Assembly (NCBI GenBank): GCA_030345135.1
Contig: CP128386.1
Span: 1,136,521-1,200,520, forward strand
Source of the DNA: Chitinophagaceae bacterium DXS
GTDB taxonomy: Bacteria > Bacteroidota > Bacteroidia > Chitinophagales > Chitinophagaceae
Reading direction: 5' to 3'
DNA length: 64,000 bases
Shown here: positions 919 to 63,640 of the stretch, piece by piece
Position numbering within the stretch: the stretch's first letter is position 1
Layout: each line of letters begins with the position of its first letter
Position numbers and translations under genes: made by a program
The notes under the pieces: generated by a model
Databases searched by the model: none
Told to the model about the DNA's origin: nothing
Seen by the model: only the letters and a program-made list of their open reading frames with translations

Positions 919-1072
919 GAGCTGTCAGCTATCAGCTATCAGCTTTTAGTTTGTTGATGAGTTATGATCAGCACGCTTTAATTCATCAGTATATAAGGTT
1001 AGTAGAAAAATAATTAATAAATCAATACTCAATGAGCCAGGGCTGAAAGCTAATAACTGACAGTGGCAGCTC
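919..1072. repeat. Inverted pair of AGCTATC-type heptamer arrays
   Basis: Directly after the cysE stop lies an array of 7-bp units (AGCTGTC, AGCTATC, AGCTATC, AGCTTTT) at 919-948. A degenerate reverse-complement array occupies 1041-1072 (GCTGAAAGCTAATAAC...GCAGCTC). The arms can pair across about 90 nt, giving an imperfect hairpin between cysE and cysM. No coding potential is apparent. Confidence 0.65.
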
Positions 1073-1087
1073 CAAAAATCTCAACGG

Positions 1088-1999
1088 ATGAAAGCAAACA
1101 GTATCCTTGAAACGATAGGAAATACCCCGCATGTAAAGATCAACAGATTGTACCCCTCCAACATAGAAGTTTGGAGCAAACTCGAAAGAGCAAATCCGGG
1201 TGGCAGCATTAAAGACCGTATTGCATTGTCAATGGTTGAAGATGCAGAAAAAAAAGGATTGCTAAGTTCTGACAGTGTTATAATTGAACCTACGTCTGGC
1301 AATACAGGTATCGGGCTGGCAATGGTTGCTGCTGTAAAAGGCTACAAACTTATTCTTGTAATGCCTGAGAGCATGAGTGTTGAGCGCAGAAGACTGATGA
1401 GCGTTTACGGCGCTACATTTGAGCTTACGCCACGCGAAAAAGGAATGAAGGGTGCAATTGAAAAAGCAAAGGAACTGGTTGAATCAACACCTAATGCATG
1501 GATGCCACAACAATTTGATAACCCGGCAAACGTAGATGTACATATCAGGACAACCGCGGAGGAAATAGTAAAAGATTTTCCTGAAGGTCTGGACTTTTTA
1601 ATTACAGGTGTTGGCACCGGCGGACATATTACCGGCGTTGGTGAAGTGTTGAAAAACCATTTTCCTAACCTGAAGGTTTTTGCAGTTGAACCTGAGCTTT
1701 CTCCGGTTATCAGTGGCGGAAGTCCCGGTCCGCATCCTATACAGGGAATTGGTGCAGGCTTTATTCCTGCAAACCTCCATACAGATGTACTTGATGGCGT
1801 GATCCTCGTTAACAAAGATGAAGCTTTTGAATACACACGAAGAGCAGCAACAGAAGAAGGCATTTTTCAGGGTATTTCAAGCGGCGGCACTATGGCTGCA
1901 CTTGCTAAGAAATTGCCTGAAATTCCTGCAGGTAGCCGTGTGCTGATCTTTAACTACGATACGGGTGAAAGGTATTTGAGTATTGAAGGACTTTATTAG
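1088..1999 (+). CDS. cysM: Cysteine synthase (O-acetylserine sulfhydrylase)
   Basis: PLP enzyme that joins O-acetylserine and sulfide to make L-cysteine. The 303-residue fold-type II protein has the PLP lysine at K42 (SIKDR), the substrate loop TSGNTG (69-74), the phosphate-binding glycine loop GTGGHITG and the C-terminal SSGG motif that contacts the PLP ring. It follows cysE on the same strand and is probably under the same cysteine attenuator. CysM is preferred to CysK because of the short length and the NPGGSIKDR form of the lysine motif. The CysK/CysM distinction is not certain. Confidence 0.9.
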
Positions 2000-2079
2000 A
2001 AGACCGTAAGACTGTAAGATAGTAAGACCGTAAGACAGTAAGACAGTAAGACGTGTAAGATGGGTAAGATGGGTAAGAA
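2000..2079. repeat. GTAAGAC-type short tandem array
   Basis: Beginning at the cysM stop, about ten degenerate 8-9-bp units follow one another (GTAAGACT, GTAAGATA, GTAAGACC, GTAAGACA, GTAAGATGG). It leads into the 104-bp tandem repeat. The same word family recurs reverse-complemented at 16262-16300. Confidence 0.8.
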
Positions 2080-2091
2080 AAATAAAACCTG

Positions 2092-2617
2092 TCAGGATTG
2101 TCAGAAATGGTAAGATTTGTCTGATGGGGTGTAAGATGAAAATAAGCAAGATGAATACAGGTACTTCGTACTTCGTAAATCGTACTTGTTTCCAATCAAG
2201 ATTGTCAGAAATGGTAAGATTTGTCTGATGGGGTGTAAGATGAAAATAAGCAAGATGAATACAGGTACTTCGTACTTCGTAAATCGTACTTGTTTCCAAT
2301 CAGGATTGTCAGAAATGGTAAGATTTGTCTGATGGGGTGTAAGATGAAAATAAGCAAGATGAATACAAGTACTTCGTACTTCGTAAATCGTGCTTGTTTC
2401 CAATCAGGATTGTCAGAAATGGTAAGATTTGTCTGATGGGTGTAAGATGAAAATAAGCAAGATGAATACAGGTACTTCGTACTTCGTAAATCGTACTTGT
2501 TTCCAATCAAGATTGTCAGAAATGGTAAGATTTGTCTGATAGGGTGTAAGATGAAAATAAACAGGATGAATACTGGTACTTCGTACTTCGTACTTCGTAA
2601 ATCGTACTTGTTTCCAA
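2092..2617. repeat. Five-copy ~104-bp tandem repeat
   Basis: Units start at 2092, 2196, 2300, 2404 and 2507, with lengths 104, 104, 104, 103 and 111 bp. Copies are nearly identical. Unit 4 lacks one G in the GGGG run, and unit 5 carries one extra 7-bp TACTTCG unit plus a few changes. Each unit ends in the TACTTCG/TAAATCG heptamer motif found alone elsewhere in the window. Open frames on the minus strand across it are repeat artefacts. The last unit supplies the -33 TTG of a possible promoter at 2608-2636. Confidence 0.9.
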
Positions 2618-2636
2618 ATTAACGGTACTACTTTTG
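2608..2636 (+). promoter_or_regulatory. Bacteroidota-type promoter candidate
   Basis: TTG (2608-2610), 18 bp, then TACTTTTG (2629-2636), which matches TAnnTTTG. The -33 element lies inside the last 104-bp repeat. Transcription would begin a few nucleotides after 2636, practically at the ATG of the 19-codon frame at 2641. Confidence 0.4.
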
Positions 2637-4648: not shown

Positions 4649-4654
4649 GAGGAG

Positions 4655-4785
4655 GGCTTAAAGCTAAAGCGCAAAGCTTAAAGCTTGGTGAGTTGTACGT
4701 TGTAAGTTATACGTTGTACGTTGATCGAGGAGTGAGGTAGAAGGCTTGAGGTATGAGGTATAAGGTCTAAGGTATGAGGCATGAG
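4655..4785. repeat. Three consecutive heptamer arrays
   Basis: After trxB come (i) CTTAAAG/CTAAAGC units at 4655-4686, (ii) GTACGTT, GTAAGTT, ATACGTT, GTACGTT at 4694-4722, and (iii) GAGGTAT, AAGGTCT, AAGGTAT, GAGGCAT units at about 4734-4785. All three have a 7-bp period but unrelated words. No coding potential is visible. Confidence 0.7.
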
Positions 4786-4839
4786 TAAGATTGCCGTACT
4801 TTGATTGAAGAGCAGGTTTTGAGTGACAATAGGTGTTTT

Positions 4840-4945
4840 AAACCTAAGCCTTTGTGTTCTTTAGCGCATTCGCGCCTTCTTTAAAAGGTACTCAATTTCT
4901 TTGACTCCTTTGTGTCCTTCGTGTCTTCGTCTTTCAAACTGTATT
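4840..4945. repeat. CTTTGTGTCCTTCGTG-type degenerate repeat
   Basis: Two related stretches (CCTTTGTGTTCTTTAG at about 4849 and CTTTGTGTCCTTCGTG at about 4909) of T/C-rich 8-9-bp units in the gap before the pheA leader. No gene-like structure is seen. Confidence 0.45.
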
Positions 4946-5007
4946 TCTCACTTGTTTGTAACAAAAACAGCATAAAAAAAATTATGCACTCTTATACTCT
5001 GAACAGT

Positions 5008-5040
5008 AGCTGATAGCTGATAGCTCATAGCTGACAGCTT
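5008..5040. repeat. AGCTGAT heptamer array
   Basis: Units AGCTGAT, AGCTGAT, AGCTCAT, AGCTGAC, AGCTT in perfect 7-bp register, ending 32 bp before the pheA leader promoter. The same family occurs at 919-948, 8649-8667, 26918-26955, 41848-41885 and 47013-47045. Confidence 0.75.
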
Positions 5041-5071
5041 ACTAACATTCGTTTAAAACTTGTGAAAAAAA

Positions 5072-5102
5072 TTTGTTGCGAATTACATTGTAACTATATT
5101 TG
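5072..5102 (+). promoter_or_regulatory. Promoter of the aromatic cluster
   Basis: TTTG (5072-5075), exactly 19 bp, TATATTTG (5095-5102): a full match to the Bacteroidota -33/-7 consensus TTTG-N19-TAnnTTTG. It lies directly before the Phe/Tyr leader peptide, whose ATG is 8 nt after the final G. The transcript would therefore have only a few nucleotides of 5' UTR. Confidence 0.7.
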
Positions 5103-5109
5103 AGCCTCA

Positions 5110-5202
5110 ATGATGACAAAAGCAAATACATACGGTTACTTTTACTTCTTTTTCTTTTACTTTTTTAGAAGCAAGAGCCGGGTCGTGTTTGCTACGATAT
5201 AA
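5110..5202 (+). CDS. Phe/Tyr leader peptide
   Basis: A 30-codon frame starting with two adjacent ATGs (5110, 5113) and ending TAA (5200-5202). Residues 8-19 read YGYFYFFFFYFF, i.e. seven Phe and four Tyr in twelve codons, with one more Phe at 27. It sits behind a consensus promoter and ahead of a strong terminator and the prephenate dehydratase gene, which makes phenylalanine. This is the layout of a leader that senses charged tRNA-Phe and possibly tRNA-Tyr. It is too short for ordinary gene prediction. Confidence 0.85.
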   Translation: MMTKANTYGYFYFFFFYFFRSKSRVVFATI

Positions 5203-5256
5203 GATTAAATAAAAAAATCAGCAATACAGTCCCGGCAAAAAGCCGGGACTTTTTTT
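5177..5256 (+). promoter_or_regulatory. Phe/Tyr attenuator terminator and antiterminator
   Basis: Terminator: AGTCCCGGC (5228-5236), AAAAA loop, GCCGGGACT (5242-5250), T-tract to 5256, with the pheA ATG at 5262. Inside the leader, GCCGGG (5177-5182) is complementary to CCCGGC (5231-5236) of the left arm, so the two structures exclude each other. The antiterminator strand lies 18-23 nt upstream of the leader stop rather than after it, so the exact ribosome geometry is less clear than in the cysE attenuator. AGCAA/TTGCT (5170-5174/5189-5193) may present it in a loop. Confidence 0.75.
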
Positions 5257-5261
5257 GTTAT

Positions 5262-6092
5262 ATGGCAACGAAAGTCTCAATACAAGGATACGAAGGCAGT
5301 TTTCACCAGGTGGCTGCACAGCAATATTTCGGCAAAGATGTAGAAGTGATTGCCTGCGCAACATTTAGAGAAGTAGTTAAAATTGCAGCTAACAAAAAGG
5401 AAAGTAACGGCGGTGTAATGGCCATCGAGAATTCCATCGCCGGAAGCATTTTACCCAACTACACGTTGTTACAAAAAAGCAATCTGAAAGTGGTGGGCGA
5501 AGTTTACCTCCAAATCAGGCAACATCTTTTAGTTAACCCCGGTGTTAAGTTTGAAGACATACGTGAGGTGCACTCTCACCCCATTGCCATATTACAGTGC
5601 ATGGATTACCTGGATAAACACAACTGGAAACTTGTAGAGACAGAAGATACAGCCCTGAGTGCAAAACACATCCATCAGCACAAAAGCAAACATATAGCAG
5701 GTATAGCAAGCAAGCTGGCTGCAGAACTTTTTCAACTGGAGGTAATCGCGCCCAATATTCACACAATGAAAAACAACTACACACGTTTTCTTGTGTTGCA
5801 GAGAGAAGATGAGGCGCAAACAGTTCCGGATGCAAATAAGGCATCCGTTAATTTTCATACAGACCACTCAAGAGGAAGTTTAGCCAGAGTGCTTACTACC
5901 ATTGCAGATGGCGGTATCAACTTAAGCAAACTGCAAAGCTTTCCTATTCCCGGAACGGAATGGAAGTATAGCTTTCATGCAGACATGGAATTTGATTCTC
6001 TGGACCAGTTTGAATCCGTGCTGGGCAAGATGAAGAAAGTTACCGAAGACATGAAAGTGTATGGTGTATATAAAAAAGGAAAAACGATCTAA
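5262..6092 (+). CDS. pheA: Prephenate dehydratase
   Basis: Converts prephenate to phenylpyruvate in phenylalanine synthesis. The 276-residue monofunctional enzyme has a PDT domain (about 4-185) with AIENSIAGSI (54-63) and the catalytic Thr174-Arg-Phe motif (NNYTRF). A C-terminal ACT domain (about 195-270, GSLARVL) is expected to bind phenylalanine for feedback control. No chorismate mutase domain is present; that activity is fused to the DAHP synthase at 10.6 kb. The start lies 5 bp after the attenuator T-tract, so expression is probably set by the Phe/Tyr leader as well as by the ACT domain. Confidence 0.95.
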   Translation: MATKVSIQGYEGSFHQVAAQQYFGKDVEVIACATFREVVKIAANKKESNGGVMAIENSIAGSILPNYTLLQKSNLKVVGEVYLQIRQHLLVNPGVKFEDIREVHSHPIAILQCMDYLDKHNWKLVETEDTALSAKHIHQHKSKHIAGIASKLAAELFQLEVIAPNIHTMKNNYTRFLVLQREDEAQTVPDANKASVNFHTDHSRGSLARVLTTIADGGINLSKLQSFPIPGTEWKYSFHADMEFDSLDQFESVLGKMKKVTEDMKVYGVYKKGKTI

Positions 6093-6097
6093 AGCAG

Positions 6098-6210
6098 CAA
6101 GTACGAAGTTAGAAGGACGAATTACCGGATCAACAACTTGCTCCTTTACAAAACTTCCAACAAATTGCAAATGACAAAAAACGTACAACGTAGAACTTAT
6201 AACGTATAAC
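6098..6210. repeat. Degenerate TACGAAG and ACGTACA heptamer arrays
   Basis: The pheA-aminotransferase gap holds a short AAGTACGAAGTTAGAAG stretch (6100-6116) and, abutting the next gene, ACGTACA, ACGTAGA, ACTTATA, ACGTATA (6181-6208) in 7-bp register. No terminator is seen, in keeping with cotranscription. Confidence 0.6.
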
Positions 6211-6214
6211 TAAC

Positions 6215-7369
6215 ATGACAACGGCGAAAAGACTAAACGGCATAGGTGAATATTATTTTTCTCAAAAGCTAAGAGAAATAGACGAACTGAATAAGCAAGG
6301 CAAAAACATTATCAACCTGGGTATTGGAAGTCCGGACCTTCCGCCACATCCTGATGTGATTAAAGTTCTGCAGGATGAAAGTGCAAAGCCCAATGTGCAT
6401 GCTTATCAGAACTACAAAGGTTCTCCTGTATTACGTAAGGCTTTCGCTGATTGGTACAGCAAATGGTATGGAGTTGAGTTGAATGTCGATACGGAAATAC
6501 TACCACTGATCGGAAGCAAGGAAGGTATTATGCATATCTGCATGACTTACCTGAACGAAGGCGATGTAGTATTGGCACCCAATCCCGGTTATCCAACGTA
6601 TAGAAGTGCAGCTAAGTTAGCCGGTGGAACTATCAAAGAATATTCTTTAAAAGAAAGCACCAACTGGTTTCCTGATTTTGAAGAGTTGGAAGCTTTCGTC
6701 AGGGAGGGTAACGTTAAGTTGATGTTCGTGAACTATCCGCAGATGCCAACAGGCCAGCTTCCTACAACTGAGTTGTTTGAGCAGTTGGTGGCATTTGCTA
6801 AAAAGCATAATGTCCTGCTTGTTCATGATAATCCGTACAGCTTTATCCTGAATAACAATCCCCAAAGCCTGTTAAGTGTGGCGGGCGCAAAAGATGTGGC
6901 GATTGAACTAAATTCATTAAGTAAATCACAAAATATGGCGGGCTGGCGCGTAGGGGTGCTGGTTGGTGCTAAAGATAGAATTGATGAAGTATTGCGTTTT
7001 AAAAGCAATATGGATAGCGGCATGTTCCTTCCTGTACAACTGGCGGCTGCAAAAGCTTTGAGCCTGGAGCAGGACTGGTACGATAGCGTAAATAAAGTGT
7101 ATGGGGAAAGACGTTCTAAGGTTTATGAATTACTCGATACACTAAAATGTGAATATTCAAAGGACCAGGTAGGTATGTTCATGTGGGCGAAGATTCCTGA
7201 TGATTATAAAGATTGCTATGCAATTGCAGATGAAGTGTTGTACAACAGCAATGTGTTTATAACACCCGGAGGAATATTTGGAACAGAAGGCGAGCGCTAT
7301 ATAAGAATTAGTTTGTGCGGTTCAATCGAACGCTTTGAAGAAGCAATAAGGAGGATATCTGATGTCTGA
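6215..7369 (+). CDS. Class I/II PLP aminotransferase, probably aromatic
   Basis: 384-residue fold-type I aminotransferase. Visible motifs are the N-terminal GIGSPDLPP substrate loop (37-45), PNPGYP (122-127), the HDNPYSF segment (204-210; Asp binds the PLP nitrogen) and the PLP lysine K237 in SLSKSQNMAGWR. Closest relatives are aspartate/LL-diaminopimelate-type transaminases. Position between pheA and tyrA suggests transamination of phenylpyruvate and 4-hydroxyphenylpyruvate; this is inferred from context. The stop codon lies inside the first copy of the 136-bp repeat. Confidence 0.88.
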   Translation: MTTAKRLNGIGEYYFSQKLREIDELNKQGKNIINLGIGSPDLPPHPDVIKVLQDESAKPNVHAYQNYKGSPVLRKAFADWYSKWYGVELNVDTEILPLIGSKEGIMHICMTYLNEGDVVLAPNPGYPTYRSAAKLAGGTIKEYSLKESTNWFPDFEELEAFVREGNVKLMFVNYPQMPTGQLPTTELFEQLVAFAKKHNVLLVHDNPYSFILNNNPQSLLSVAGAKDVAIELNSLSKSQNMAGWRVGVLVGAKDRIDEVLRFKSNMDSGMFLPVQLAAAKALSLEQDWYDSVNKVYGERRSKVYELLDTLKCEYSKDQVGMFMWAKIPDDYKDCYAIADEVLYNSNVFITPGGIFGTEGERYIRISLCGSIERFEEAIRRISDV

Positions 7370-7500
7370 TTTTTTGATCGCTGATCTCTTAAGTGCAACA
7401 GCAATAGTAGATATCAAAACGGTTGATTTTCGGACTTTATAAAATTAATCAAAAGCTTAGCACCAACGCAGATCAGACATCAGACATCAAAAAATCTGAG
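7365..7500. repeat. 136-bp element, copy 1
   Basis: Begins TCTGATTTTTTGATCG and ends CATCAAAAAATCTGAG. The ends are inverted repeats of one another (TCTGATTTTTTGAT versus ATCAAAAAATCTGA, 13 of 14 pairing). It overlaps the last bases of the aminotransferase gene, supplying its TGA stop. A second copy starts 150 bp further on. It has no coding capacity and resembles a small MITE- or hairpin-type element. Confidence 0.8.
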
Positions 7501-7514
7501 AACGAAGAAGAATC

Positions 7515-7650
7515 TCTGATTTTTTGATCGCTGATCTCTTAAGTACAACAGCAATAGCAGATATCAAAACGGTTGATTTTCGGACTTTGTAAAATTAATC
7601 AAAAGCTTAGCACCAAAGCAGATCAGACATCAGACATCAAAAAATCTGAG
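7515..7650. repeat. 136-bp element, copy 2
   Basis: Near-identical direct copy of 7365-7500, with a few substitutions and a 14-bp spacer between copies. The terminal GACATCAGACATCAAAA is a 7-bp-period word also seen at 27262-27290 and 42700-42730. The remaining bases to tyrA (7651-7721) hold further degenerate copies of the same words. Confidence 0.8.
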
Positions 7651-7721
7651 ATTAATAATTGTCACGCTCTCGCATTAAAACAAATCAGAGATCGGACATC
7701 TAAAAATCAGCGATAAAGAAA

Positions 7722-8561
7722 ATGGTTGTTACAATAATAGGCATAGGATTAATCGGGGGTTCAATGGCTCTGACATTGAAGGAGAAGGGTTTTGCCGATA
7801 GTGTAATCGGTGTGGATGCAAAAGAAGAACATCAGCAAAAGGCGTTGGAACTGGGACTTGTAGATGAAATACTTCCGCTGGAAGAGGCAGTAAAAAAATC
7901 AGACGTTGTTGTGTTGGCCATCCCGGTAAATGCCTGCGTTAAAGTATTGCCGCAGATCCTGAACTGGGTAGACAAACAAGTGGTGATAGATGCAGGTTCA
8001 ACGAAAGGCAGTTTAATAGCAGCCGTAAAAAATCATCCTAAAAGAAAAAGATACGTCCCTACACATCCGATGTGGGGGACGGAGTATTCCGGACCTGAAG
8101 CAGCAATAAGAGGTGGTTTCGTCAATAAGGCAACTGTTATCTGTAGCAAGGAGGATAGCGATGCGGACGCGGTTGAGGTTGCAGAACAATTGTACAAAAC
8201 ACTTGGTATGCACCTAGTGTACATGAATGCAGAGGCCCACGATGTACATGTGGCATATATCAGTCATATTTCTCATATAACATCATTCGCCCTGGCTAAT
8301 ACCGTATTGGAGAAGGAAAAAGAAGAGGACGCCATTTTTGAACTGGCAAGTGCGGGTTTTGAAAGTACTGTGAGGCTGGCGAAAAGTAACCCGGCCATGT
8401 GGGTGCCGATATTCATGCAGAATAAAGAGAATGTATTAGATGTTTTAAATGAGCATATTTCCCAGTTGCGCAAGTTCAAAGCCTGCCTCGAAAAGGAGAA
8501 CTATGAATACTTGCAGGAGTTGATTGAGAATGCGAATAAGATCAGGAGGATCATTAAATAA
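7722..8561 (+). CDS. tyrA: Prephenate dehydrogenase
   Basis: NAD(P)-dependent oxidative decarboxylation of prephenate to 4-hydroxyphenylpyruvate, for tyrosine. The 279 residues begin with a Rossmann nucleotide-binding GIGLIGG (7-13). They contain the conserved THPMWGTEYSGP segment (substrate His and surrounding residues) and the dimerising helical C-terminal domain with HVAYISHISH. No ACT or chorismate mutase domain, so this is the short monofunctional form. It follows the pheA and aminotransferase genes on the same strand. Confidence 0.95.
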   Translation: MVVTIIGIGLIGGSMALTLKEKGFADSVIGVDAKEEHQQKALELGLVDEILPLEEAVKKSDVVVLAIPVNACVKVLPQILNWVDKQVVIDAGSTKGSLIAAVKNHPKRKRYVPTHPMWGTEYSGPEAAIRGGFVNKATVICSKEDSDADAVEVAEQLYKTLGMHLVYMNAEAHDVHVAYISHISHITSFALANTVLEKEKEEDAIFELASAGFESTVRLAKSNPAMWVPIFMQNKENVLDVLNEHISQLRKFKACLEKENYEYLQELIENANKIRRIIK

Positions 8562-8670
8562 TTGATAATGGACAAGTGATAATTGACGATGCGGTTCGGT
8601 TTGGGATGGAATACGATTTAACAAATAGCGCAGCGGAGATAACTAAAAGCTCACAGCTGATAGCTTGAAA
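8562..8670. repeat. TAATTGA and AGCTGAT repeat remnants
   Basis: Directly after tyrA are TTGATAATGGACAAGTGATAATTGAC-like units (about 8562-8588), then a short AGCTCACAGCTGATAGCTT stretch (8649-8667). Both belong to families seen elsewhere in the window. Confidence 0.5.
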
Positions 8671-8730
8671 ATCAGCATGAATTATAAAAAAAATAATATA
8701 GCATAGAGCAAGGATAATCCAACAAATCAA

Positions 8731-8760
8731 TTGATACGTGCTTTTTCGGGGTTACCTTTG
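8731..8760 (+). promoter_or_regulatory. Promoter of the DEAD-box helicase gene
   Basis: TTG (8731-8733), 19 bp, TACCTTTG (8753-8760), matching TTG-N19-TAnnTTTG, with the ATG 19 bp downstream. It indicates that the helicase and perhaps the later aro genes have their own transcription start inside the cluster. Confidence 0.65.
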
Positions 8761-8778
8761 CGCAAATATTAAATAGTA

Positions 8779-10446
8779 ATGATAACATTTGAAGGATTGG
8801 GATTAGAAGAGCGATTGGTAAAGGCTACCAGTGAATTAGGCTTTGTTAATCCTACTGCCATACAGGAAAAGGCTATTCCTGTTTTGTTAAGTGGCACAAA
8901 AGATTTGATTGGTCTGGCGCAGACCGGTACGGGTAAAACAGCTGCATTTAGTTTGCCGTTGTTGCAGTTGATTGATGCGGAACAAAAGCATCCTCAGGCG
9001 TTGGTGGTTTGTCCAACACGTGAGCTTTGTCTGCAGATAGTTAAAGAAATAGAGCAATTTAAAAAACATATAAAAGGTGTTCATGTAGTTGCGGTTTATG
9101 GTGGAGCTTCAATCGGATTGCAGATAAGAGATTTGAAAAGAGGTGTGCAGATTGTTGTGGCAACTCCGGGAAGATTGATTGATCTGATTGAGCGTAAAGC
9201 CATCAACCTGGAAGAAATTGAATATGTGGTTTTGGATGAGGCGGATGAAATGTTGAACATGGGCTTTAAAGAAGATATCGAATTCATTCTTCAAAACACG
9301 CCTAAACGTGAAAGTACCTGGTTGTTCAGTGCGACAATGCCGCCAGAAATTCGCAAGGTGAGCAAACGTTACATGACAGACCCGATTGAGGTTACAGTTG
9401 GCAAGGTTAACACCGCCAATAAAAACATCGATCATCAGTACTACGTAACAACTGCACATCAACGTTATCAGTCGTTGAAAAGACTGATCGATTTTAATCC
9501 TGGTATCTATGGCATCATCTTTACGCGTACCAAAGCTGATGCCCAGGAAATTGCAGAGAAACTTACTCGTGAGGGTTATGATATAGATGCATTGCATGGT
9601 GATTTAACCCAGCAACAACGTGATAAGGTAATGGGGCAGTTCCGCGATAAAAGTCTGCAGTTATTAATTGCTACGGACGTTGCGGCAAGAGGTATAGATG
9701 TTCAGGGAATCACACACGTAATTAACTATGAGCTTCCTGATGATGTGGAAGTTTACACACACAGAAGCGGTAGAACAGGACGCGCGGGCAACACTGGTAT
9801 TTGTATGAGCATTGTGCATGCAAGGGAATTGTACAGGCTAAGACAAATTCAGAACATTGTAAACTCGCCTTTCAACAGGTTGGAAATACCAAGCGGTAAA
9901 GATGTTTGTCGCAAGCAGTTCTTCTACTTTATGGATAAATTACTGCAAACAGATATCAGCCATGGGGACTATGAAACTTATGTTCCAATGCTCGCTGAAA
10001 AATTTGCAGACGTTTCTAAGGAAGAAGTACTGAAGCGGGTAGCGGCAATGGAGTTCGATAGATTTTTGAAATATTATGAAAATGCCGAAGATCTGAATGT
10101 TAGAGAGCAATCACGTGATGCCCGCGGAAGAGACAGGGCTGGTGCTAGAAGAGACGATCAAAGAGGTGGCCGTGAAAGAGGAAATTACAATGCAGCCGGT
10201 AACGGTGAAATGACGCGACTCTTTGTAAATCTTGGAAGCAAAGACGGTTTCTATAAAGCAAGTTTCCTTCAGTTCATTCTTGACATGAGTGATTTGAGAA
10301 AAGATGTGTTAGGAAGAATAGACATGAAGGAAATGAATAGCTGGATCGAAATTGACAAACGTGCAGCTGGACAAATGATCAAAGCCATTGATGGTAAAAA
10401 CTACAAAGGCAGAAGGATCAGAATGAACGACGCAAACAGCAGATAG
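8779..10446 (+). CDS. DEAD-box ATP-dependent RNA helicase
   Basis: 555 residues with the DEAD-box motifs in order: Q motif (NPTAIQ), Walker A AQTGTGKT (47-54), PTREL, TPGR, DEAD (about 154-157), SAT, and HRSGRTGR. The C-terminal part has an Arg/Gly-rich linker (REQSRDARGRDRAG...) and a DbpA-like RNA-binding domain (about 475-550, LFVNLGSKDGFYKASF). This is the DeaD/DbpA group that remodels rRNA and mRNA in the cytoplasm. It interrupts the aromatic gene cluster and has its own promoter, so a role in aromatic synthesis is not implied. Confidence 0.93.
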   Translation: MITFEGLGLEERLVKATSELGFVNPTAIQEKAIPVLLSGTKDLIGLAQTGTGKTAAFSLPLLQLIDAEQKHPQALVVCPTRELCLQIVKEIEQFKKHIKGVHVVAVYGGASIGLQIRDLKRGVQIVVATPGRLIDLIERKAINLEEIEYVVLDEADEMLNMGFKEDIEFILQNTPKRESTWLFSATMPPEIRKVSKRYMTDPIEVTVGKVNTANKNIDHQYYVTTAHQRYQSLKRLIDFNPGIYGIIFTRTKADAQEIAEKLTREGYDIDALHGDLTQQQRDKVMGQFRDKSLQLLIATDVAARGIDVQGITHVINYELPDDVEVYTHRSGRTGRAGNTGICMSIVHARELYRLRQIQNIVNSPFNRLEIPSGKDVCRKQFFYFMDKLLQTDISHGDYETYVPMLAEKFADVSKEEVLKRVAAMEFDRFLKYYENAEDLNVREQSRDARGRDRAGARRDDQRGGRERGNYNAAGNGEMTRLFVNLGSKDGFYKASFLQFILDMSDLRKDVLGRIDMKEMNSWIEIDKRAAGQMIKAIDGKNYKGRRIRMNDANSR

Positions 10447-10532
10447 TAATTGATAATTGACAATGGATAATTGACAACTGACAATTAATTCCAAGCGTTC
10501 ATTTTCAATTATCCATTTTCAATTTTCAATTA
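10447..10532. repeat. Inverted pair of TAATTGA heptamer arrays
   Basis: Immediately after the helicase stop codon, TAATTGA, TAATTGA, CAATGGA, TAATTGA, CAACTGA units run from 10447. The reverse complement of 10502-10532 matches 10447-10477 with four substitutions. The two arms can form a hairpin of about 31 bp with a 24-nt loop. Confidence 0.8.
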
Positions 10533-11652: not shown

Positions 11653-11791
11653 AAAGTACGAGTTACGAAGTTAGAAGTACTTAGTTTTTCGGCTTCGTAA
11701 CTCCATACTTACCCGTTTCCAACCATTTCAGCGTGATCGATTAAGTGAACGGCTTACACCTGGGTACTTCGTACTTCGTAATTCGTACTTT
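11653..11791. repeat. Inverted pair of TACTTCG heptamer arrays
   Basis: AAAGTACGAGTTACGAAG... (11653-11681) faces its degenerate reverse complement GTACTTCGTACTTCGTAA... (11764-11791) across about 80 nt. The TACTTCG unit is the same as in the 104-bp repeat at 2.1-2.6 kb and in the arrays at 14349 and 20890. Confidence 0.75.
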
Positions 11792-12858: not shown

Positions 12859-12964
12859 AGTGAAAAGTGAATGGTGAATAGTGAAAGGTGAAGCATGCTG
12901 ATAAAACTCAAGCCTTACACCTCAAACCTTACACCTGAAGCCTTACACCTGGAACCTTACACCT
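12859..12964. repeat. GTGAAAA and CTTACAC heptamer arrays
   Basis: Starting five bases after the aroB stop: GTGAAAA, GTGAATG, GTGAATA, GTGAAAG, GTGAAGC (12860-12894). Then CTTACAC, CTCAAAC, CTTACAC, CTGAAGC, CTTACAC, CTGGAAC, CTTACAC (12914-12962), i.e. a 7-bp unit arranged as a 14-bp super-repeat. It ends about 13 bp before the aroA start. Confidence 0.8.
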
Positions 12965-12976
12965 AATACAACAAAC

Positions 12977-14272: not shown

Positions 14273-14377
14273 AGCGTAAAGCTTAAAGCCCAAAGCCTAA
14301 AGCTGAAAACTTAGAACTCATTGAAGATTGTAAACATATTTAAAGTTGGGTACTTCGTACTTCGTAATTCGTACCTG
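14263..14377. repeat. AAAGCCT array and TACTTCG array
   Basis: AAAGCGT, AAAGCGT, AAAGCTT, AAAGCCC, AAAGCCT, AAAGCTG (14264-14305) in 7-bp register, starting inside the aroA coding end. A TACTTCGTACTTCGTA array follows at 14349-14375. Both words recur elsewhere (63570-63640 and 11764-11791). Confidence 0.75.
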
Positions 14378-16261: not shown

Positions 16262-16300
16262 TCTTACTATCTTACGGTATTACTGTCTTACTATTTTAAT
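16262..16300. repeat. TTACTATC-type 8-bp array
   Basis: TCTTACTATCTTACGGTATTACTGTCTTACTATTTTAATACT: degenerate 8-bp units, the reverse-complement family of the GTAAGAC array at 2000-2079. It abuts the start of the following gene. Confidence 0.6.
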
Positions 16301-16303
16301 ACT

Positions 16304-19259: not shown

Positions 19260-19370
19260 GGAGGATGTACGATGTTAGATGTACGGTGTTAGATGTAAGG
19301 AGATGTCTGATTTTTATGTATGATGTACGATTTTAGATGTTCGATGTAGATGCAATGTTAGATTTAGATG
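19260..19370. repeat. GATGTTA/GATGTAC heptamer array
   Basis: GATGTAC, GATGTTA, GATGTAC, GGTGTTA, GATGTAA in 7-bp register directly after the RlpA stop, decaying into scattered GATGT words to about 19370. The reverse-complement family (ACATCTA, ACATCGT) is at 42730-42785. Confidence 0.75.
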
Positions 19371-19645
19371 TACTGGTTAGCGATATGTGTGATGTATGTT
19401 TTTTTATTTTCCGATTTTTTTGATATCTGACTTGTAGGTGCTGATTTCGCCTTCACCTGAATTGATACCTGGACAACAGAAGATTAGCTCATAGCTTACA
19501 GCTTACCTGATACCTTACGCCTGATACCTAATGCCTCACGCCTCCTGCCTTCCCAAAATTTCTTCTCCACTCAATGAAACATATTTTAAAATTTGTGCTA
19601 TTTTAGTAAGATTGAAAATCACTGTACCTATTATAAATTGCGTGT
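19371..19645. repeat. AGCTTAC and GATACCT repeat block before the 205-residue protein
   Basis: Gap without a gene. AGCTCATAGCTTACAGCTTAC at 19496-19516 is followed by GATACCT, TACGCCT, GATACCT, AATGCCT, CACGCCT, CCTGCCT (19509-19551) in 7-bp register. Nothing else is recognisable up to the start at 19646. Confidence 0.6.
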
Positions 19646-26919: not shown

Positions 26920-26955
26920 CTGTGAGCTATCAGCTCTTAGCTCTTAGCCGTTAGC
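26917..26955. repeat. AGCTATC heptamer array
   Basis: AGCTGTG, AGCTATC, AGCTCTT, AGCTCTT, AGCCGTT, AGCTGC, beginning with the last base pairs of the isomerase stop codon (TAG at 26917-26919). Confidence 0.75.
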
Positions 26956-27001: not shown

Positions 27002-27384
27002 GAGGTATCAGGTTTCAGGTGTCAGGTATCAGGTAGCACAAAGTGTGAAGCATAAGGTATAAGGTGTAAAATATAAGGTATAAGGATTAAGGTATAAGGA
27101 TTAAGGTATAAGGATTAAGGTATAAGGCGTAAGTTAAGAGTGCTTAGGTTTAAGAGCCAGGTAAGGCTGTGTCAGGCAACTATAATTTTTAATTTAGCTA
27201 TAGCTGTGCTCTAAAGTTGATTGCACCCAATTAGCCTGCTGCACCGAAAGAAATCAGAGATGAAAAAATCCGACATCAGACATTCGCATATTTCCCATCC
27301 GCACATTTGCACATCTACACATTTGCACATTCGCACATTTTTCCATCCGCCATTTTCCCCGCCTGACTGACGCAGTCGGGCAGG
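27002..27384. repeat. Five adjoining short-period arrays and a palindromic module
   Basis: In order: CAGGTAT, CAGGTTT, CAGGTGT units (27007-27035, 7 bp); AAGGTAT, AAGGATT, AAGGTAT units (27049-27135, 7 bp); GACATCAGACAT words (27270-27284); GCACATTT, GCACATCT, ACACATTT, GCACATTC units (27300-27340, 8 bp); and a 24-bp module GCCTGACTGACG...GTCGGGCAGG (27361-27384). No gene is present in 26920-27535. Confidence 0.75.
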
Positions 27385-28294: not shown

Positions 28295-28456
28295 GCAATT
28301 CAAAATTCAAAAGTAAAAATTCAAAAATAGTTTCGACTATAAATGAAACTATGTTTCACTTGAATATTTGAGTTGACGATTGGCAGGTAAAAAACTAAAG
28401 CTCTTGCAAATGGTCATCGTTTTGACTTTTGACTTTTGACTTTTGACTTTTGACTT
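28295..28456. repeat. AATTCAAAA words and TTTTGAC heptamer array
   Basis: Degenerate CAATTCAAAATTCAAAAG stretch at 28298-28329 and a clean TTTTGAC, TTTTGAC, TTTTGAC, TTTTGAC, TTTTGAC array at 28420-28454 (7-bp period), between convergent genes. Confidence 0.75.
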
Positions 28457-33276: not shown

Positions 33277-33644
33277 GTGATCGTTTTTTTTAAATTGAAA
33301 ATTGAAAAAGAAAAAAACTTATATGAATGGTTACAGTATTATTTTTTCAATGGGATTTACGTATGATGGACTGATTGGAATTGGGACGTAGCACGTCTTT
33401 GGGTACAAATAAATCATTTGCATTGAAGAGTATTTTTTTCATGTTTGTTTGGCCAAAATAGTCATAAAATGATGTTAACAAATCGTTACGGATTTTTTTT
33501 ATCCAATTTTAATTCCTTTTAATTGGTGTAAACGGGGAGATTAAAAGAGATTAAAAAAATATTAATGCATCAATGTTGGTGATTTGAAAAAAACACCCGG
33601 GCACTTTTAAAAACAGCTATATTCAGCACGAGGAACAAGGCGAA
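33277..33644. other. Divergent promoter region, SusC and Lhr genes
   Basis: About 370 bp, very AT-rich near SusC, without the short tandem arrays seen in other gaps and without an open frame. It must hold the promoters of both divergent units; no convincing TAnnTTTG element was found for either. Confidence 0.4.
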
Positions 33645-36176: not shown

Positions 36177-36510
36177 TGGACAATTGAAGTTGATAATTGA
36201 AAATGAGGGAGAATGTGCGAATGTGCGAATGTGTAAATGTGCGAATGAAGGCATTGTCAAGCTGAGATCTATGTGAATTAATAATTACTGTAATTGTTCG
36301 TTTTCTCTCTGTGTAACTGTATTTTAATCATTTACATAAATCCCAAAAAAATAGTTAGACCAATTAAGATCTAACTATCAATTAAAACATTGTATATAGC
36401 ACTGTTATTTCATTGTGCATGTTTCACATTTGCACATTTACTCATTCGCACATTTGCACATTCGCACATTCGCACATCATTGTCAATTATCAACTTTCAA
36501 TTGTCAATTG
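36177..36510. repeat. Composite inverted repeat of TAATTGA and GTGCGAAT arrays
   Basis: Left arm: GGACAATTGAAGTTGATAATTG (from 36178), then GTGCGAATGTGCGAAT units (36213-36246). Right arm, reversed and in mirror order: CACATTTGCACATTTA...CGCACATTCGCACAT (36422-36477), then TCAATTATCAACTTTC (from 36483). The whole gap between helicase and DUF4249 genes is thus a nested inverted pair with two families per arm. Confidence 0.75.
36344..36378 (-). terminator. Terminator of the TonB receptor/DUF4249 operon
   Basis: On the minus strand ATAGTTAGA, 10-nt loop, TCTAACTAT, then seven T (plus-strand A run 36345-36351). It lies 136 bp after the DUF4249 stop, inside the loop region of the composite inverted repeat. 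Confidence 0.7.
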
Positions 36511-41839: not shown

Positions 41840-41909
41840 CCATGCTGATAGCTAATGGCTAATTGCTAATTGCTGATAGCTGAAACCTGAAACCTGACAC
41901 CTATATTTG
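41840..41909 (+). repeat. Heptamer arrays ending in a -7 promoter element
   Basis: GCTGATA, GCTAATG, GCTAATT, GCTAATT, GCTGATA (41844-41879) passes into TGAAACC, TGAAACC, TGACACC (41881-41901). The latter runs straight into TATATTTG (41902-41909), a TAnnTTTG match whose last G is 8 nt from the pdeM ATG. Array and promoter are contiguous in 7-bp register. Confidence 0.6.
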
Positions 41910-42576: not shown

Positions 42577-42585
42577 GGACTCGAG

Positions 42586-42785
42586 GTGTCAGGTATCAGG
42601 TTTCAGGTGGCAGTCAGCTTTCAGCTATGAGCCATCAGCTTATCTTTCGAATATTGGTGTTTGTTCTACAGAAAGTTATGTCAGCGATAAATAAATCAGA
42701 CATCAAAAAATCACACATCAGACATTTTTTCACATCTAACACCATACATCTAACATCGTACACCGCACACCTAACATCGTACATT
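42586..42785. repeat. Several heptamer arrays between convergent genes
   Basis: CAGGTAT, CAGGTTT, CAGGTGG (42588-42611); AGCTTTC, AGCTATG words (42616-42640); ACATCAA/ACATCAG (42704-42722); CATCTAA, CACCATA, CATCTAA, CATCGTA, CACCGCA, CACCTAA, CATCGTA (42733-42781). Open frames through this stretch are repeat artefacts. Confidence 0.7.
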
Positions 42786-47012: not shown

Positions 47013-47045
47013 AGCTGATAGCTCATAGCTGATAGCTGACAGCTT
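47013..47045. repeat. AGCTGAT heptamer array
   Basis: AGCTGAT, AGCTCAT, AGCTGAT, AGCTGAC, AGCTT between glpK and glpF, same family as at 5008-5040. Confidence 0.75.
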
Positions 47046-54676: not shown

Positions 54677-54705
54677 GTAGAGACGTTGCATTGCAACGTC
54701 TCTAC
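54677..54705. repeat. GAGACGTTGC hairpin repeat
   Basis: GTAGAGACGTTGCA (54677-54690) and TGCAACGTCTCTAC (54692-54705) form a 14-bp stem with a one-base loop. Decayed copies follow (CAACGTCCCAACGGTTGCAACG to 54746). A shorter hairpin GACGTTGC-CTTT-GCAACGTC is at 54817-54836, beyond the terminator. Confidence 0.8.
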
Positions 54706-54750
54706 AATTGCAACGTCCCAACGGTTGCAACGCCCCCAACGTTGCACCCC

Positions 54751-62002: not shown

Positions 62003-62082
62003 TAAGCCCCTTTTTAAATCCAGTTTATCCAAGATTATTCCCGGGTTAACCCGTGGCCAAGAAACAACAACCATTCAACAAA

Positions 62083-63513
62083 ATGAATTTTATGAAACCT
62101 AATCGCACAAAACTATCTCGTGCTGCTCTCTTAATGATGGTAGGATTACCTCTAGCTACTTTTGCACAAGACACCACAAAAGACTCAAAAGATTTTTCCT
62201 ACGGAAAACCCAGTTTCTGGCGTTCTTACGATCAAAAAGGTATCAACGTTTTTGAAACCGGTAAACAAGATTACAACAAACCTTATGATGGAATGAAGAT
62301 CCGGTTTGGTGCATCTTTCACCCAGCAGTTTCAAAACCTGAAACATAAAAATCCGGACGCGCAGGACAACCAGGGCGTGAATAAACTATATCCCATTTCA
62401 GATGCATTCATGACTGCACAGGCCAATTTGTTCCTGGATGCGCAACTTGCGGATGGTATTCGCCTGAATGTTACAAGTTACCTGTCTTCACGTCACCACA
62501 ATGAAACCTGGGTAAAAGGCGGATACATTCAATTTGATAAACTTCCCTTCAAAGGCAAAATATGGGATGATATTATGAAAGTAACCACCATTAAAATTGG
62601 TGAGTATGATGTGAACTATGGTGATCAGCATTTCAGAAGGTCTGATGGCGGACATGTGCTTTATAATGCCTTTATGGATAACTACATTATGGATGCGTTC
62701 ACAACAGAAATAGGTGGTGATATTACTGTACAGAAAAACGGATTATTTGGAGTGCTTGGAATTACAGGCGGTACTTTAAAAGGCTACGCAGATTCTGTTT
62801 GGCAGAACACTGTAAACCCCAAAGGTCAGTTACAGCCTTCTATAATCCTTAAAGCAGGCTTCGACAAACAAGTGAACGAAGATTTGCGAGTACGTGTTTC
62901 CGGCAGCTGGTACCACAATGGAAATACAGGTAATAAATGGAACACTTTGTATTGGGGCGACAGAACCGGTTCTAACTACCAGAACGTGATGGAAAAATGG
63001 AAAGGTGCAGACGGCAACGTGCAGGCGTTGACAGCTATTCCATGGTCAGGCAGATTGAATCCACAATTCAGCCAGAGAGTTGACGCGTTTATGCTGAATG
63101 GCTTCCTGAAATATAAAGGCTTTGAATTCTTTGGTACATATGAAACCGCATCAGGATGCAGTGGTACCACGTATTCAGGCGCCAATACAAAATTCACAGA
63201 CAGCGTAAAACGCACAATGAATCAATATGCAGTTGAAGGTATTTACAGATTTAGCATAGGAAGGCCAGAAAACTTGTTTATTGGTGCACGTTATAATTCA
63301 GTATCCGGAAAACTGGCAAATACACCAACCATTACCTATAATGGTGATATCACAGTTAACCGCGTAGCCTTAAGTGCAGGTTGGTTCCTTACAAAGAACG
63401 TGTTGTTGAAAGGTGAATTGGTGAACCAGCAATACAAAAATTTCCCTGCAGCTGACTGGCGCAGCGGCGGAAAATTCAATGGTTATGTAATTGAAGCCAC
63501 CATTGGGTTCTAA
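62083..63513 (+). CDS. Porin-like outer membrane protein
   Basis: 476 residues from ATG 62083; ATG 62092 (MKPNRTKLSRAALLMM) and a GTG at 62053 are alternatives. Signal peptide ending LATFAQ. The mature part shows beta-barrel strands: IRFGASFTQQFQNLKHK, DAFMTAQANLFLDAQLADGIRLNVTSYLSSRHH, GRPENLFIGARYNSVSGKLAN, ending ATIGF with the terminal aromatic of outer membrane barrels. Resembles porins of the phosphate-/alginate-export type; substrate unknown. A GGGTTAACCC palindrome lies at 62043-62052 before the gene. Confidence 0.72.
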   Translation: MNFMKPNRTKLSRAALLMMVGLPLATFAQDTTKDSKDFSYGKPSFWRSYDQKGINVFETGKQDYNKPYDGMKIRFGASFTQQFQNLKHKNPDAQDNQGVNKLYPISDAFMTAQANLFLDAQLADGIRLNVTSYLSSRHHNETWVKGGYIQFDKLPFKGKIWDDIMKVTTIKIGEYDVNYGDQHFRRSDGGHVLYNAFMDNYIMDAFTTEIGGDITVQKNGLFGVLGITGGTLKGYADSVWQNTVNPKGQLQPSIILKAGFDKQVNEDLRVRVSGSWYHNGNTGNKWNTLYWGDRTGSNYQNVMEKWKGADGNVQALTAIPWSGRLNPQFSQRVDAFMLNGFLKYKGFEFFGTYETASGCSGTTYSGANTKFTDSVKRTMNQYAVEGIYRFSIGRPENLFIGARYNSVSGKLANTPTITYNGDITVNRVALSAGWFLTKNVLLKGELVNQQYKNFPAADWRSGGKFNGYVIEATIGF

Positions 63514-63545
63514 GATTTTTTCAAGGTTCGATGTATATTTGATGT

Positions 63546-63572
63546 AGCCGGTTCTTTAACCGGCTTTTTTTT
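63546..63572 (+). terminator. Intrinsic terminator of the YceI/porin unit
   Basis: AGCCGGTT (63546-63553), CTTT loop, AACCGGCT (63558-63565), followed by a T run to 63572. Confidence 0.9.
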
Positions 63573-63576
63573 GTTA

Positions 63577-63640
63577 AAAGCCTAAAGCCTAAAGCTGAAA
63601 GCCTAAAGCCTAAAGCTGAAAGCCTAAAGCCTAAAGCTTA
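63577..63640. repeat. AAAGCCT heptamer array
   Basis: AAAGCCT, AAAGCCT, AAAGCTG, AAAGCCT, AAAGCCT, AAAGCTG, AAAGCCT, AAAGCCT, AAAGCTT: perfect 7-bp register with a 21-bp super-period. Same family as 14263-14305. It leads straight into the 181-bp repeat. Confidence 0.9.

What the first reader, a model, noticed from the sequence alone, without database searches (positions are those of the whole stretch)
919..63640. Many unrelated intergenic repeat families share a 7-bp period
Seen in gap after gap: AGCTGAT, TACTTCG, AAAGCCT, CAGGTAT, AAGGTAT, TAATTGA, GATGTTA, CTTACAC, TTTTGAC, GTACGTT, GTGAAAA, ACGTACA and TGAAACC arrays, each 4-12 units in heptamer register. A few families have 8 bp (GCACATTT, GTAAGACT). 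They lie between genes, often starting at the stop codon. A shared unit length without shared sequence suggests one generating process, such as slippage or repeat-primed copying, acting on different seeds. Heptanucleotide STRR repeats are known in cyanobacteria; a multi-family version in Bacteroidota is not something I recognise.
Basis: partly seen in the sequence, partly recalled or inferred. Interest (0 to 1): 0.8.

Follow-up and report, generated by a model that had tools for sequence, protein, structure and literature searches.

The report
Core-and-free-letter repeat arrays between genes
In this Chitinophagaceae genome more than a quarter of the sampled spaces between genes carry tandem 7- or 8-letter repeats built from a fixed core plus freely varying letters, which likely serve as side-by-side landing sites for still unknown DNA-binding proteins rather than being simple copying errors.

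Summary
The 7-bp period is real and genome-wide. In 464 kb, gaps show lag-7 identity of 0.311 against 0.269 shuffled (z 28), with 173 period-7 and 39 period-8 arrays against 1.4 and 3.8 in shuffles. The reading "unrelated seeds, one slippage process" does not hold. All 64 heptamer unit types found in G000 form one single-step network (17 clusters expected). Each family has the same fixed core and the same free columns at independent loci (0 of 2000 shuffles in 16 of 18 tests). The pitch belongs to the core: AG[CG]T.T and GT[CG]AA sit at 7, ATGTGC at 8, GTAAGA at 8 or 9. Arrays often lie as inverted pairs, but the arms share only the core, G-U mismatches do not exceed A-C, and unpaired arrays keep the same core, so a hairpin is not what is preserved. 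Some congeners nearly lack arrays; sister species keep many array positions but change the dialect. Best reading: tandem protein-site arrays, copy number drifting by duplication. No protein is identified; none of five gene families tested tracks the arrays cleanly. Single-family relatives are known (GGGNATC, TAACTGA, Geobacter paired repeats).

The parts
920..967 (+). period-7 array AGCTNTN family, right after the stop of 109-918; distal partner near 1042-1063
2000..2052 (+). period-8 array GTAAGANN
2046..2078 (+). period-9 continuation GTAAGANNN (same core, one more free base)
2161..2184 (+). period-7 GTACTTC array (first of the copies inside a 104-bp tandem repeat 2092-2599)
2576..2606 (+). 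period-7 GTACTTC array
4666..4737 (+). period-7 array, AAAGCTT units then GTACGTT units
4742..4785 (+). period-7 AGGTATG array
5007..5042 (+). period-7 TAGCTGA array
6161..6210 (+). period-7 CGTAYAA array
7472..7489 (+). period-7 ATCAGAC array
7622..7639 (+). period-7 ATCAGAC array (second copy of the 150-bp duplication)
10447..10484 (+). period-7 TAATTGA array, left arm, first base after the stop codon
   Evidence: shares the rare unit CAATGGA with the right arm
10501..10531 (-). period-7 TGAAAAT array (ATTTTCA on the + strand), right arm of the inverted pair
11653..11680 (-). degenerate GTACTTC-family left arm
11764..11790 (+). period-7 GTACTTC array, right arm
12859..12892 (+). period-7 RGTGAAW array
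12913..12969 (+). period-7 CCTNACA array (C-rich side of the same gap)
14273..14318 (+). period-7 AAAGCYN array starting at the stop codon
14350..14373 (+). period-7 GTACTTC array
16262..16301 (-). period-8 GTAAGANN-family array on the minus strand (TCTTACNN on the + strand)
19264..19299 (+). period-7 GATGTNN array
19316..19347 (+). period-7 GATGTNN array
19485..19550 (+). period-7 array passing from AGCT to CCTNA units in one register
26920..26955 (+). period-7 AGCTNTT array at a stop codon
27003..27038 (+). period-7 AGGTNTC array
27041..27133 (+). period-7 AGGTATA array with a 14-bp block duplication
27296..27339 (+). period-8 GCACATNN array
28297..28326 (+). period-7 AATTCAA array, left arm (a pair of reversed polarity)
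28420..28456 (+). period-7 TTTTGAC array, right arm
33292..33316 (+). period-7 AAATTGA array
36179..36247 (+). left arm of a mirrored composite: CAATTGA heptads then GAATGTGC octads, 2 nt after the stop
   Evidence: stem score 40.5
36435..36505 (-). right arm: octads then heptads in mirror order, 187 bp from the left arm
41844..41902 (+). period-7 array drifting from GCTGATA to CCTGACA
42584..42639 (+). period-7 array drifting from AGGTNTC to TCAGCNN
42732..42783 (+). period-7 ACAYCNN array
47013..47044 (+). period-7 AGCTGAT array
63577..63640 (+). period-7 AAAGCYN array with a 21-bp block repeat

Best explanation
The arrays are two-part repeats, a fixed core plus free bases at a pitch set by the core (7, 8 or 8/9 bp), and they most likely serve as tandem binding sites on which sequence-specific proteins would sit side by side, not as the output of a polymerase with a 7-base ruler. 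Shown: period and family structure; core and free columns; pitch locked to core; inverted pairs that in general share only the core; one connected heptamer vocabulary in G000, partly shared between genera; orthologous positions with changed units between sister species; arrays that mostly end at stop codons; neighbouring units more alike than distant ones. Inferred: that the core is kept because a protein reads it, that one protein covers one unit, that several contiguous units are needed for stable binding, and that paired arrays bracket the intergenic region so that bound proteins could bridge or insulate it. Unit number and free letters would drift by ordinary tandem duplication; dialect shifts would follow change in the proteins. 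No such protein is identified.
For: Same columns vary in independent arrays of a family: 0 of 2000 within-array column shuffles reached the observed value in 16 of 18 family tests, e.g. AGCTATC column sums 5,1,9,11,63,7,49 and AAGACAGT 1,0,4,0,27,25,2,5 (families overlap, so one array can count in several tests). A (G081) and B (G160) share the free columns of the 8-mer and CAGGTTN families. Arrays without an inverted partner show the same columns (z 3.1 to 16.8 in 12 tests). Start-to-start spacing of exact cores in G000 gaps: AG[CG]T.T 228 at 7 and 3 at 8; ATGTGC 23 at 8, none at 7; GTAAGA 101 at 8, 29 at 9, 1 at 7; shuffles at most 2 at any spacing from 7 to 9. Run lengths of exact core units: RGTSAAW 7 doubles, 17 triples, 8 quadruples, singletons 171 against 176 in one shuffle; GTAAGANN 7, 8, 9 at 2, 3, 4, singletons 103 against 82. 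GGTSAAT x3, G or C allowed at one position, occurs in 53 of 294 family genomes and 35 of 101 genera, with G and C mixed in several; the reversed motif in 7 of 294 (my count of the table). Identical units recur between genomes outside orthologous gaps: 45 pairs against 11.9 (sd 3.1) with letters permuted. Precedent for a 7-bp array: Omega/ParB of pSM19035, one dimer per contiguous 7-bp repeat, four or more needed (PMC9499535, passages).
Against: No binding protein found: RHH_1 0 of 16 genomes. About 2,900 arrays per genome (extrapolated from 341 in 864 kb) is far beyond a usual regulon. Congeners G172 and G269 have almost none (one period-8 array in 16.6 kb of gaps against 1.95 arrays per kb in G095), so the arrays are dispensable. 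Only two of nine motifs peak at 3-4 units; AGSTNTN, AAAGCYN and CARGTTN fall from 2 upward and GTACTTC peaks at 2. Shared free columns could in part reflect descent of dispersed arrays that already held those variants. The within-array heterogeneity test alone is weak outside G000 (z 5.4 in G000; 2.4, 0.6, 1.7, 1.6 elsewhere), and a first version with an ill-fitting null gave z from -3.2 to 0.1. Two of 18 family tests are weaker (B AATGGTG 230 of 2000, B AAATCCCG 7 of 2000). In G081 and G160 codirectional gaps with arrays hold fewer terminator-like sites than those without (3 of 41 against 8 of 24; 4 of 31 against 9 of 37), not so in G000 (14 of 65 against 41 of 215), which would fit a role at transcript ends in those species.
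Confidence: 0.4

Rival explanations
1. Neutral lineage of satellites: a few ancestral heptad and octad arrays spread through the genome, and unit number and sequence drift by slippage; the period is inherited by descent.
For: One single-step network of 64 unit types in G000; neighbouring units more alike than permuted order; block duplications at 27041-27133 and 63577-63640; units changing along one array without loss of register.
Against: Core columns nearly invariant while free columns hold 3-4 letters, at independent loci and in two species whose orthologous proteins are 91% identical; the G/C dimorphism at one position of GGTSAAT recurs in several genera; same-unit arrays mostly share no flanks (score of 15 or more in 4.8% of 400 sampled G000 pairs against 0% of 400; 1.3% of 232 in A and 7.5% of 120 in B).
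Confidence: 0.25
2. RNA-level element: inverted pairs fold into long imperfect hairpins that end or stabilise transcripts from either side.
For: Stem score of 15 or more in 44% of 139 array gaps against 4.7% of 386 others in G000, 37% of 109 against 5.9% of 647 in relatives; in G000 arrays in 49% of 89 convergent gaps against 22-23% elsewhere; closeness to stop codons; fewer terminator-like sites in codirectional array gaps of G081 and G160.
Against: No G-U excess on the gene strand (23 G-U against 30 A-C in G000, 25 against 23 in relatives); arms no more alike than same-family arrays from other gaps (14.06 against 13.48, above in 67 of 125 pairs); 42% of G000 arrays have no partner and keep the same core; the convergent excess is not seen in the 80 relatives' loci (11% of 91 against 19% of 443 same-strand plus gaps); terminator-like sites overlap arrays in 2 gaps of B and in none of G000 or A; GC-rich hairpins with T-runs can lie between the arms (gaps at 112975 and 141556).
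Confidence: 0.15
3. Sequence-specific expansion by an enzyme: a nuclease, transposase or recombinase that acts at the core and duplicates 7-8 bp each time (as target-site duplications would), so that only units with an intact core keep expanding.
For: Would explain core dependence, pitch per core, patchy high-copy vocabulary in some species and none in congeners, and dispensability. RVT_1 is present in all eight array-rich genomes (G000, G081, G160, G219, G263, G298, G095, G106).
Against: No gene tested tracks the arrays cleanly: Y1_Tnp in 19 of 21 genomes, array-poor ones included; RVT_1 also in 8 of the 13 others, and absent from G070, whose 20-kb sample holds four arrays in 2.4 kb of gaps. 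Arrays mostly lack conserved flanks.
Confidence: 0.15
4. A replicative ruler: a polymerase whose footprint favours 7-nt slippage on any seed (the proposal of Mrazek et al. 2007 as told by MacGregor 2015 and Rehm 2015).
For: Heptanucleotides are the commonest long repeat class in most genomes, as told in PMC4679880; lag-7 excess.
Against: Pitch depends on the core, with 8-bp families strictly 8 and GTAAGA 8 or 9 in the same genome; units are not random seeds; nearly absent from congeners that would share the polymerases.
Confidence: 0.05

Closest known systems
Paired hepta/octanucleotide sites of Geobacter metallireducens (Aklujkar et al. 2009, PMC2700814; passages seen)
   Same: Sites of 3-5 tandem 7- or 8-bp repeats, in pairs on opposite strands at variable distance, consensus with free letters (GTTGCTYN, MTYCTGA), proposed as binding sites of unknown global regulators
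   Different: Classes of 16 to 48 aligned sequences there, plus 49 elements of four GGACCGG-type heptads; here a connected vocabulary of 64 heptamer types plus octamers in 28% of sampled gaps, with comparative tests
GGGNATC / GGGGAYT heptads of Xanthomonas and Nostoc (Rehm et al. 2015, PMC4692102; abstract and three sections read)
   Same: Period 7, one free position, intergenic, singular or inverted pair, preference for four units, G-rich strand pointing away from the gene, positions kept but length and sequence varied between relatives
   Different: One G-rich family discussed there through quadruplexes; the main families here need no G-tract and show the same layout
TAACTGA repeats of Beggiatoaceae, Cyanobacteria and five Bacteroidetes (MacGregor 2015, PMC4679880; abstract, introduction, Bacteroidetes section and passages read)
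   Same: Intergenic tandem heptads, patchy taxonomy, close to gene boundaries; other heptamer repeats noted beside them in some Bacteroidetes
   Different: A single sequence, mostly upstream of start codons; three exact tandem TAACTGA occur in 0 of 294 genomes of this family
parS of plasmid pSM19035 bound by the ribbon-helix-helix protein Omega/ParB (PMC9499535; passages seen)
   Same: Contiguous 7-bp repeats, one dimer per repeat, four or more needed for full activity
   Different: A few plasmid promoters; no RHH_1 protein detected in 16 genomes here
Cyanobacterial STRR and long simple sequence repeats (Mazel; Mrazek; recalled, or through MacGregor's introduction)
   Same: Heptanucleotide tandem repeats between genes
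   Different: Described as simple repeats; the core-plus-free structure, pitch per core and dialects are what is tested here

Membership tests
Heptanucleotide intergenic repeat arrays (STRR / long SSR class) | Tandem 7-nt units, strongly enriched between genes over shuffled DNA | tested here: met
   173 arrays against 1.4 shuffled; 19 in 388 kb coding
Heptanucleotide intergenic repeat arrays (STRR / long SSR class) | Plain repetition of one unit | tested here: not met
   Family-specific free columns; 8- and 9-bp pitches for some cores
Geobacter paired tandem sites | Tandem 7/8-mers with free letters, in inverted pairs at variable distance | tested here: met
   Loops 9-353 bp in 51 adjacent inverted pairs of G000; free columns; many arrays are unpaired
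Geobacter paired tandem sites | Bound by an IHF/HU-type regulator (proposed there) | not testable with these tools
   No binding data
G-quadruplex heptads (GGGNATC type) | Four G-tracts of three or more G | tested here: not met
   Main units (AAAGCYN, GTAAGANN, AGSTNTN, GGTSAAT, ATNTGMTR) hold no GGG; a minor family of G160 does (AAATCCCG)
G-quadruplex heptads (GGGNATC type) | G-rich strand directed away from the gene | tested here: met
   98 of 112 polarised inverted pairs G-to-C, 24 mixed pairs set aside, overlapping loci removed; a weaker skew of the same sign is seen in gaps without arrays
TAACTGA repeats | Unit TAACTGA in tandem | tested here: not met
   0 of 294 genomes with three exact units
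Ribbon-helix-helix operator arrays (Omega / MetJ) | Cognate RHH protein in the genome | tested here: not met
   RHH_1 0 of 16 genomes, 9 of 14 control genomes positive; other RHH families not tested
REP / REPIN elements with RAYT | Amplification tied to a Y1 transposase | tested here: inconclusive
   Y1_Tnp in 19 of 21 genomes, array-rich and array-poor alike; the two without it are array-poor
Intrinsic terminators | GC-rich hairpin followed by T-run within the element | tested here: not met
   Terminator-like sites overlap arrays in 2 gaps, both of B
RNA hairpin elements | Compensatory change or G-U tolerance between arms | tested here: not met
   G-U 23 against A-C 30 and 25 against 23; no general register-specific matching of arms

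The most novel reading that the evidence does not exclude
Chitinophagaceae carry a genome-wide binding code: thousands of tandem-site arrays, each a short core repeated at a core-specific 7-9 bp pitch, that bracket intergenic regions and are read by an undescribed set of cooperative DNA-binding proteins whose drifting specificities rewrite the arrays at orthologous places from species to species.
Probability: 0.27. Interest if true: 0.8.

Novelty: new variant of a known kind. Interest (0 to 1): 0.58.

Why it matters
Heptanucleotide arrays have mostly been reported one sequence at a time and explained ad hoc (quadruplexes, translation signals, polymerase footprint).

Tried and rejected
RNA hairpin or terminator: the pairing is real but G-U equals A-C, arms do not match beyond the family core in general, 42% of G000 arrays are unpaired with the same core, and terminator-like sites hardly ever overlap arrays. 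Kept in view: the pair at 10447/10502 shares a rare unit in both arms, so single arms may be copied at times; and codirectional array gaps of G081 and G160 have fewer terminator-like sites.

All-frame stop signal (7 and 8 are not multiples of 3): near stops, stop triplets outward 0.080 per nt against 0.078 shuffled in G000, 0.098 against 0.077 in A, 0.081 against 0.070 in B; near starts 0.073 against 0.080, 0.079 against 0.061, 0.057 against 0.045; too small to explain the arrays.

Mobile element: same-unit arrays rarely share flanks. Presence or absence between sister species exists (90 against 10 bp at A 125381), but many array changes are in place. Gene families as partners: Y1_Tnp, RVT_1 and RRM_1 are found in array-rich and array-poor genomes alike (RRM_1 5 to 12 copies in 16 of 16). 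The SbcD model gives only weak matches (13 of 16, none over its cut-off; the three without are array-poor), so it is uninformative.

Ribbon-helix-helix reader: RHH_1 absent in 16 of 16.

Polarity as proof of function: gaps without arrays have a weaker skew of the same sign (for example 39 against 16 and 19 against 11 in G000 codirectional gaps), so I do not lean on it. The counts included two relatives' loci (L015, L019) that are the same DNA as stretches of A and L155; removes them.

One search had one locus loaded twice and is replaced. In one search the heterogeneity null was wrong for large counts and was replaced; the neighbour test there was repeated with trimmed ends. The gap comparison depends on ORF calls; some one-sided cases (e.g. 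111906) arise from different called starts.

Full report
What is there. The window lies at 1136521-1200520 of a one-contig 7.29-Mb genome (G000). Named relatives of its DAHP synthase are Chitinophagaceae such as Filimonas, Niastella, Longitalea and Flavihumibacter (87-90% identity; best 80 of 568 confirmed loci kept). Autocorrelation of gap sequence confirms the period in the window (lag 7 z 11.9) and in a 464-kb sample (z 27.7; 173 period-7 and 39 period-8 arrays against 1.4 and 3.8 in shuffles; 19 and 2 in 388 kb of coding sequence). Over 864 kb, 158 of 563 gaps hold 341 such arrays, which extrapolates to about 2,900 in the genome.

The units are not unrelated. In G000 the 280 period-7 arrays use 64 unit types that form one network of single-base steps (17.1 clusters expected after permuting letters), and 1736 pairs of arrays share the very same unit against 77 expected. 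Of 61 octamer arrays 53 fall into two groups. In the sister genomes G081 and G160 the heptamers form 7 and 9 clusters against 22 and 27 expected. Single arrays pass from one unit to another in unbroken register, as at 41844-41902 and 42584-42639.

Core and free columns. When arrays of one family from different loci are put in phase, the same columns vary everywhere. In 16 of 18 family tests no shuffle of 2000 reached the observed concentration (families overlap, so the tests are not independent). Examples: AGSTNTN, GTAAGANN, RGTSAAW, AAAGCYN in G000; ATNTGMTR and CARGTTN in G081 and G160. The two weaker cases are both in G160 (AATGGTG 230 of 2000, AAATCCCG 7 of 2000). The pitch belongs to the core: AG[CG]T.T 228 times at 7 and 3 at 8, ATGTGC 23 at 8 and none at 7, GTAAGA 101 at 8, 29 at 9 and 1 at 7. 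The period-9 arrays in G000 therefore include GTAAGANNN, for instance at 2046-2078. A slippage ruler does not predict this.

Growth. Neighbouring units share free letters more than permuted order, also after trimming the end units (z 5.4, 4.6, 3.1 and 3.6 in G000, G081, G160 and the 80 relatives' loci; 4.1 in a small set of three arrays), and blocks of 14 and 21 bp are repeated. Arrays were found by neighbour matching, which leans towards this result. So local duplication probably takes part. In two of nine motifs the number of exact units peaks at three or four (RGTSAAW 7, 17, 8 at 2, 3, 4; GTAAGANN 7, 8, 9); AGSTNTN, AAAGCYN and CARGTTN fall from 2 upward and GTACTTC peaks at 2.

Inverted pairs. 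Arrays in one gap often face each other as reverse complements, for instance 10447-10477 with 10502-10532 and 36179-36247 with 36435-36505, the latter with heptads and octads in mirror order. Stems of score 15 or more occur in 44% of 139 array gaps and in 4.7% of 386 other gaps of G000 (37% of 109 and 5.9% of 647 in relatives). Three results argue that the hairpin itself is not what is preserved: G-U mismatches do not exceed A-C on the gene strand (23 against 30; 25 against 23 in relatives); inverted arms are no more alike than same-family arrays of other gaps (14.06 against 13.48 in G000, 12.24 against 11.98 in G081, 12.39 against 13.93 in G160); and arrays without a partner keep the same core columns. 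With two overlapping loci removed, 98 of 112 polarised pairs have the G-rich arm on the left and the C-rich arm on the right; 24 further pairs were mixed. Gaps without arrays show a weaker skew of the same sign, so this is only partly a property of the arrays.

Position. Arrays crowd to the ends of gaps (mean distance 0.16-0.18 of the free span against 0.25 at random) and mostly end at stop codons (55 of 341 begin within 2 nt of one; 11 of these 55 run 7 bp or more into the gene). In G000 they are commonest in convergent gaps (49% of 89 against 22-23% in other types), but not in the relatives' loci (11% of 91 convergent against 19% of 443 plus-plus gaps). Terminator-like sites hardly ever overlap them; outside arrays such sites are no rarer in array gaps of G000, but rarer in codirectional array gaps of G081 and G160. 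Two displayed convergent gaps have a GC-rich hairpin with T-run between the arms.

Comparison. Two sister genomes of one genus (G081, G160; 156 orthologous proteins, mean 91.2% identity) hold arrays in both at 55 of 117 orthologous gaps, in one only at 25, in neither at 37. The loop between arms can align well while unit sequences shift. In the gap after aroG both arms of G298 read mostly AATCG where its congeners read mostly AATGG. Congeners differ sharply: G095 1.23 and 0.72 arrays per kb of gap at periods 7 and 8, G172 none, G269 0 and 0.12. GGTSAAT x3 occurs in 53 of 294 family genomes and 35 of 101 genera: 279 overlapping matches in G081, 154 in G160, 3 in G000, none in the congener G298, with G and C mixed at the same position in several genera; the reversed control occurs in 7 of 294 by my count. 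Units recur between genomes outside orthologous gaps more than expected (45 against 11.9). Of the gene families tested as partners none tracks the arrays cleanly; RVT_1 is in all eight array-rich genomes but also in eight of thirteen others, and is missing from G070, which has arrays.

Interpretation. A fixed recognition pattern with a pitch of its own, kept at hundreds of loci mostly without shared flanks, is what tandem binding sites look like. A studied protein with such sites, Omega/ParB of pSM19035, uses contiguous 7-bp repeats and needs four, but its class as modelled by RHH_1 is not detected in 16 genomes here. I therefore commit to tandem protein sites of unknown reader at 0.40, with a neutral satellite lineage (0.25), core-dependent enzymatic expansion (0.15), RNA hairpins (0.15) and a polymerase ruler (0.05) as rivals.

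Known kin. Geobacter metallireducens has paired sites of tandem 7- and 8-mers with free letters, proposed as regulator sites. Xanthomonas and Nostoc have GGGNATC-type heptads with a free position, inverted pairs, four-unit preference and the same strand layout, discussed there through quadruplexes; the main units here hold no G-tract, so quadruplexes cannot explain the layout in general. TAACTGA is absent from the 294 family genomes as three exact tandem units. The searches for a description of the multi-family case in this group returned none in their listings; subscription papers are not covered.

Noticed in passing
window 2092-2599: Five tandem copies of a 104-bp unit, each with a GTACTTC array inside; GTACTTCGTACTTC occurs 164 times in the genome, also in 79-80-bp spacing at G000:C1:605037-605526.
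   Followed up: partly
window 7365-7651: A 150-bp tandem duplication (97% matches) between an aminotransferase and prephenate dehydrogenase, each copy with an ATCAGAC array.
   Followed up: no
window 63626-64000: A 181-bp period repeat that runs to the end of the window.
   Followed up: no
window 5262-15440: Aromatic amino-acid genes (prephenate dehydratase, aminotransferase, prephenate dehydrogenase, then a DEAD-box helicase gene, DAHP synthase, DHQ synthase, EPSP synthase, chorismate synthase) in a row; seven of the eight gaps from 4649 to 14435 hold an array (none detected in 8562-8778).
   Followed up: partly
G081:C39:257267-257602 and the same place in several relatives: A Y1 (REP-type) transposase-like gene sits next to aroG in many relatives; in G000 none of its seven Y1_Tnp matches lies near aroG.
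   Followed up: partly
294 family genomes: The reversed TAACTGA control, AGTCAAT x3, is itself a member of the RGTSAAW vocabulary and occurs in 19 genomes by my count, while TAACTGA x3 occurs in none.
   Followed up: no
window 54690-54746: A short 17-bp tandem repeat (ATTGCAACGTCCCAACA) just after the stop of the gene at 53375-54658.
   Followed up: no
window 18021-18047: An 11-bp repeat GGAGTAGACGT x2.5, outside the 7/8-bp pattern.
   Followed up: no
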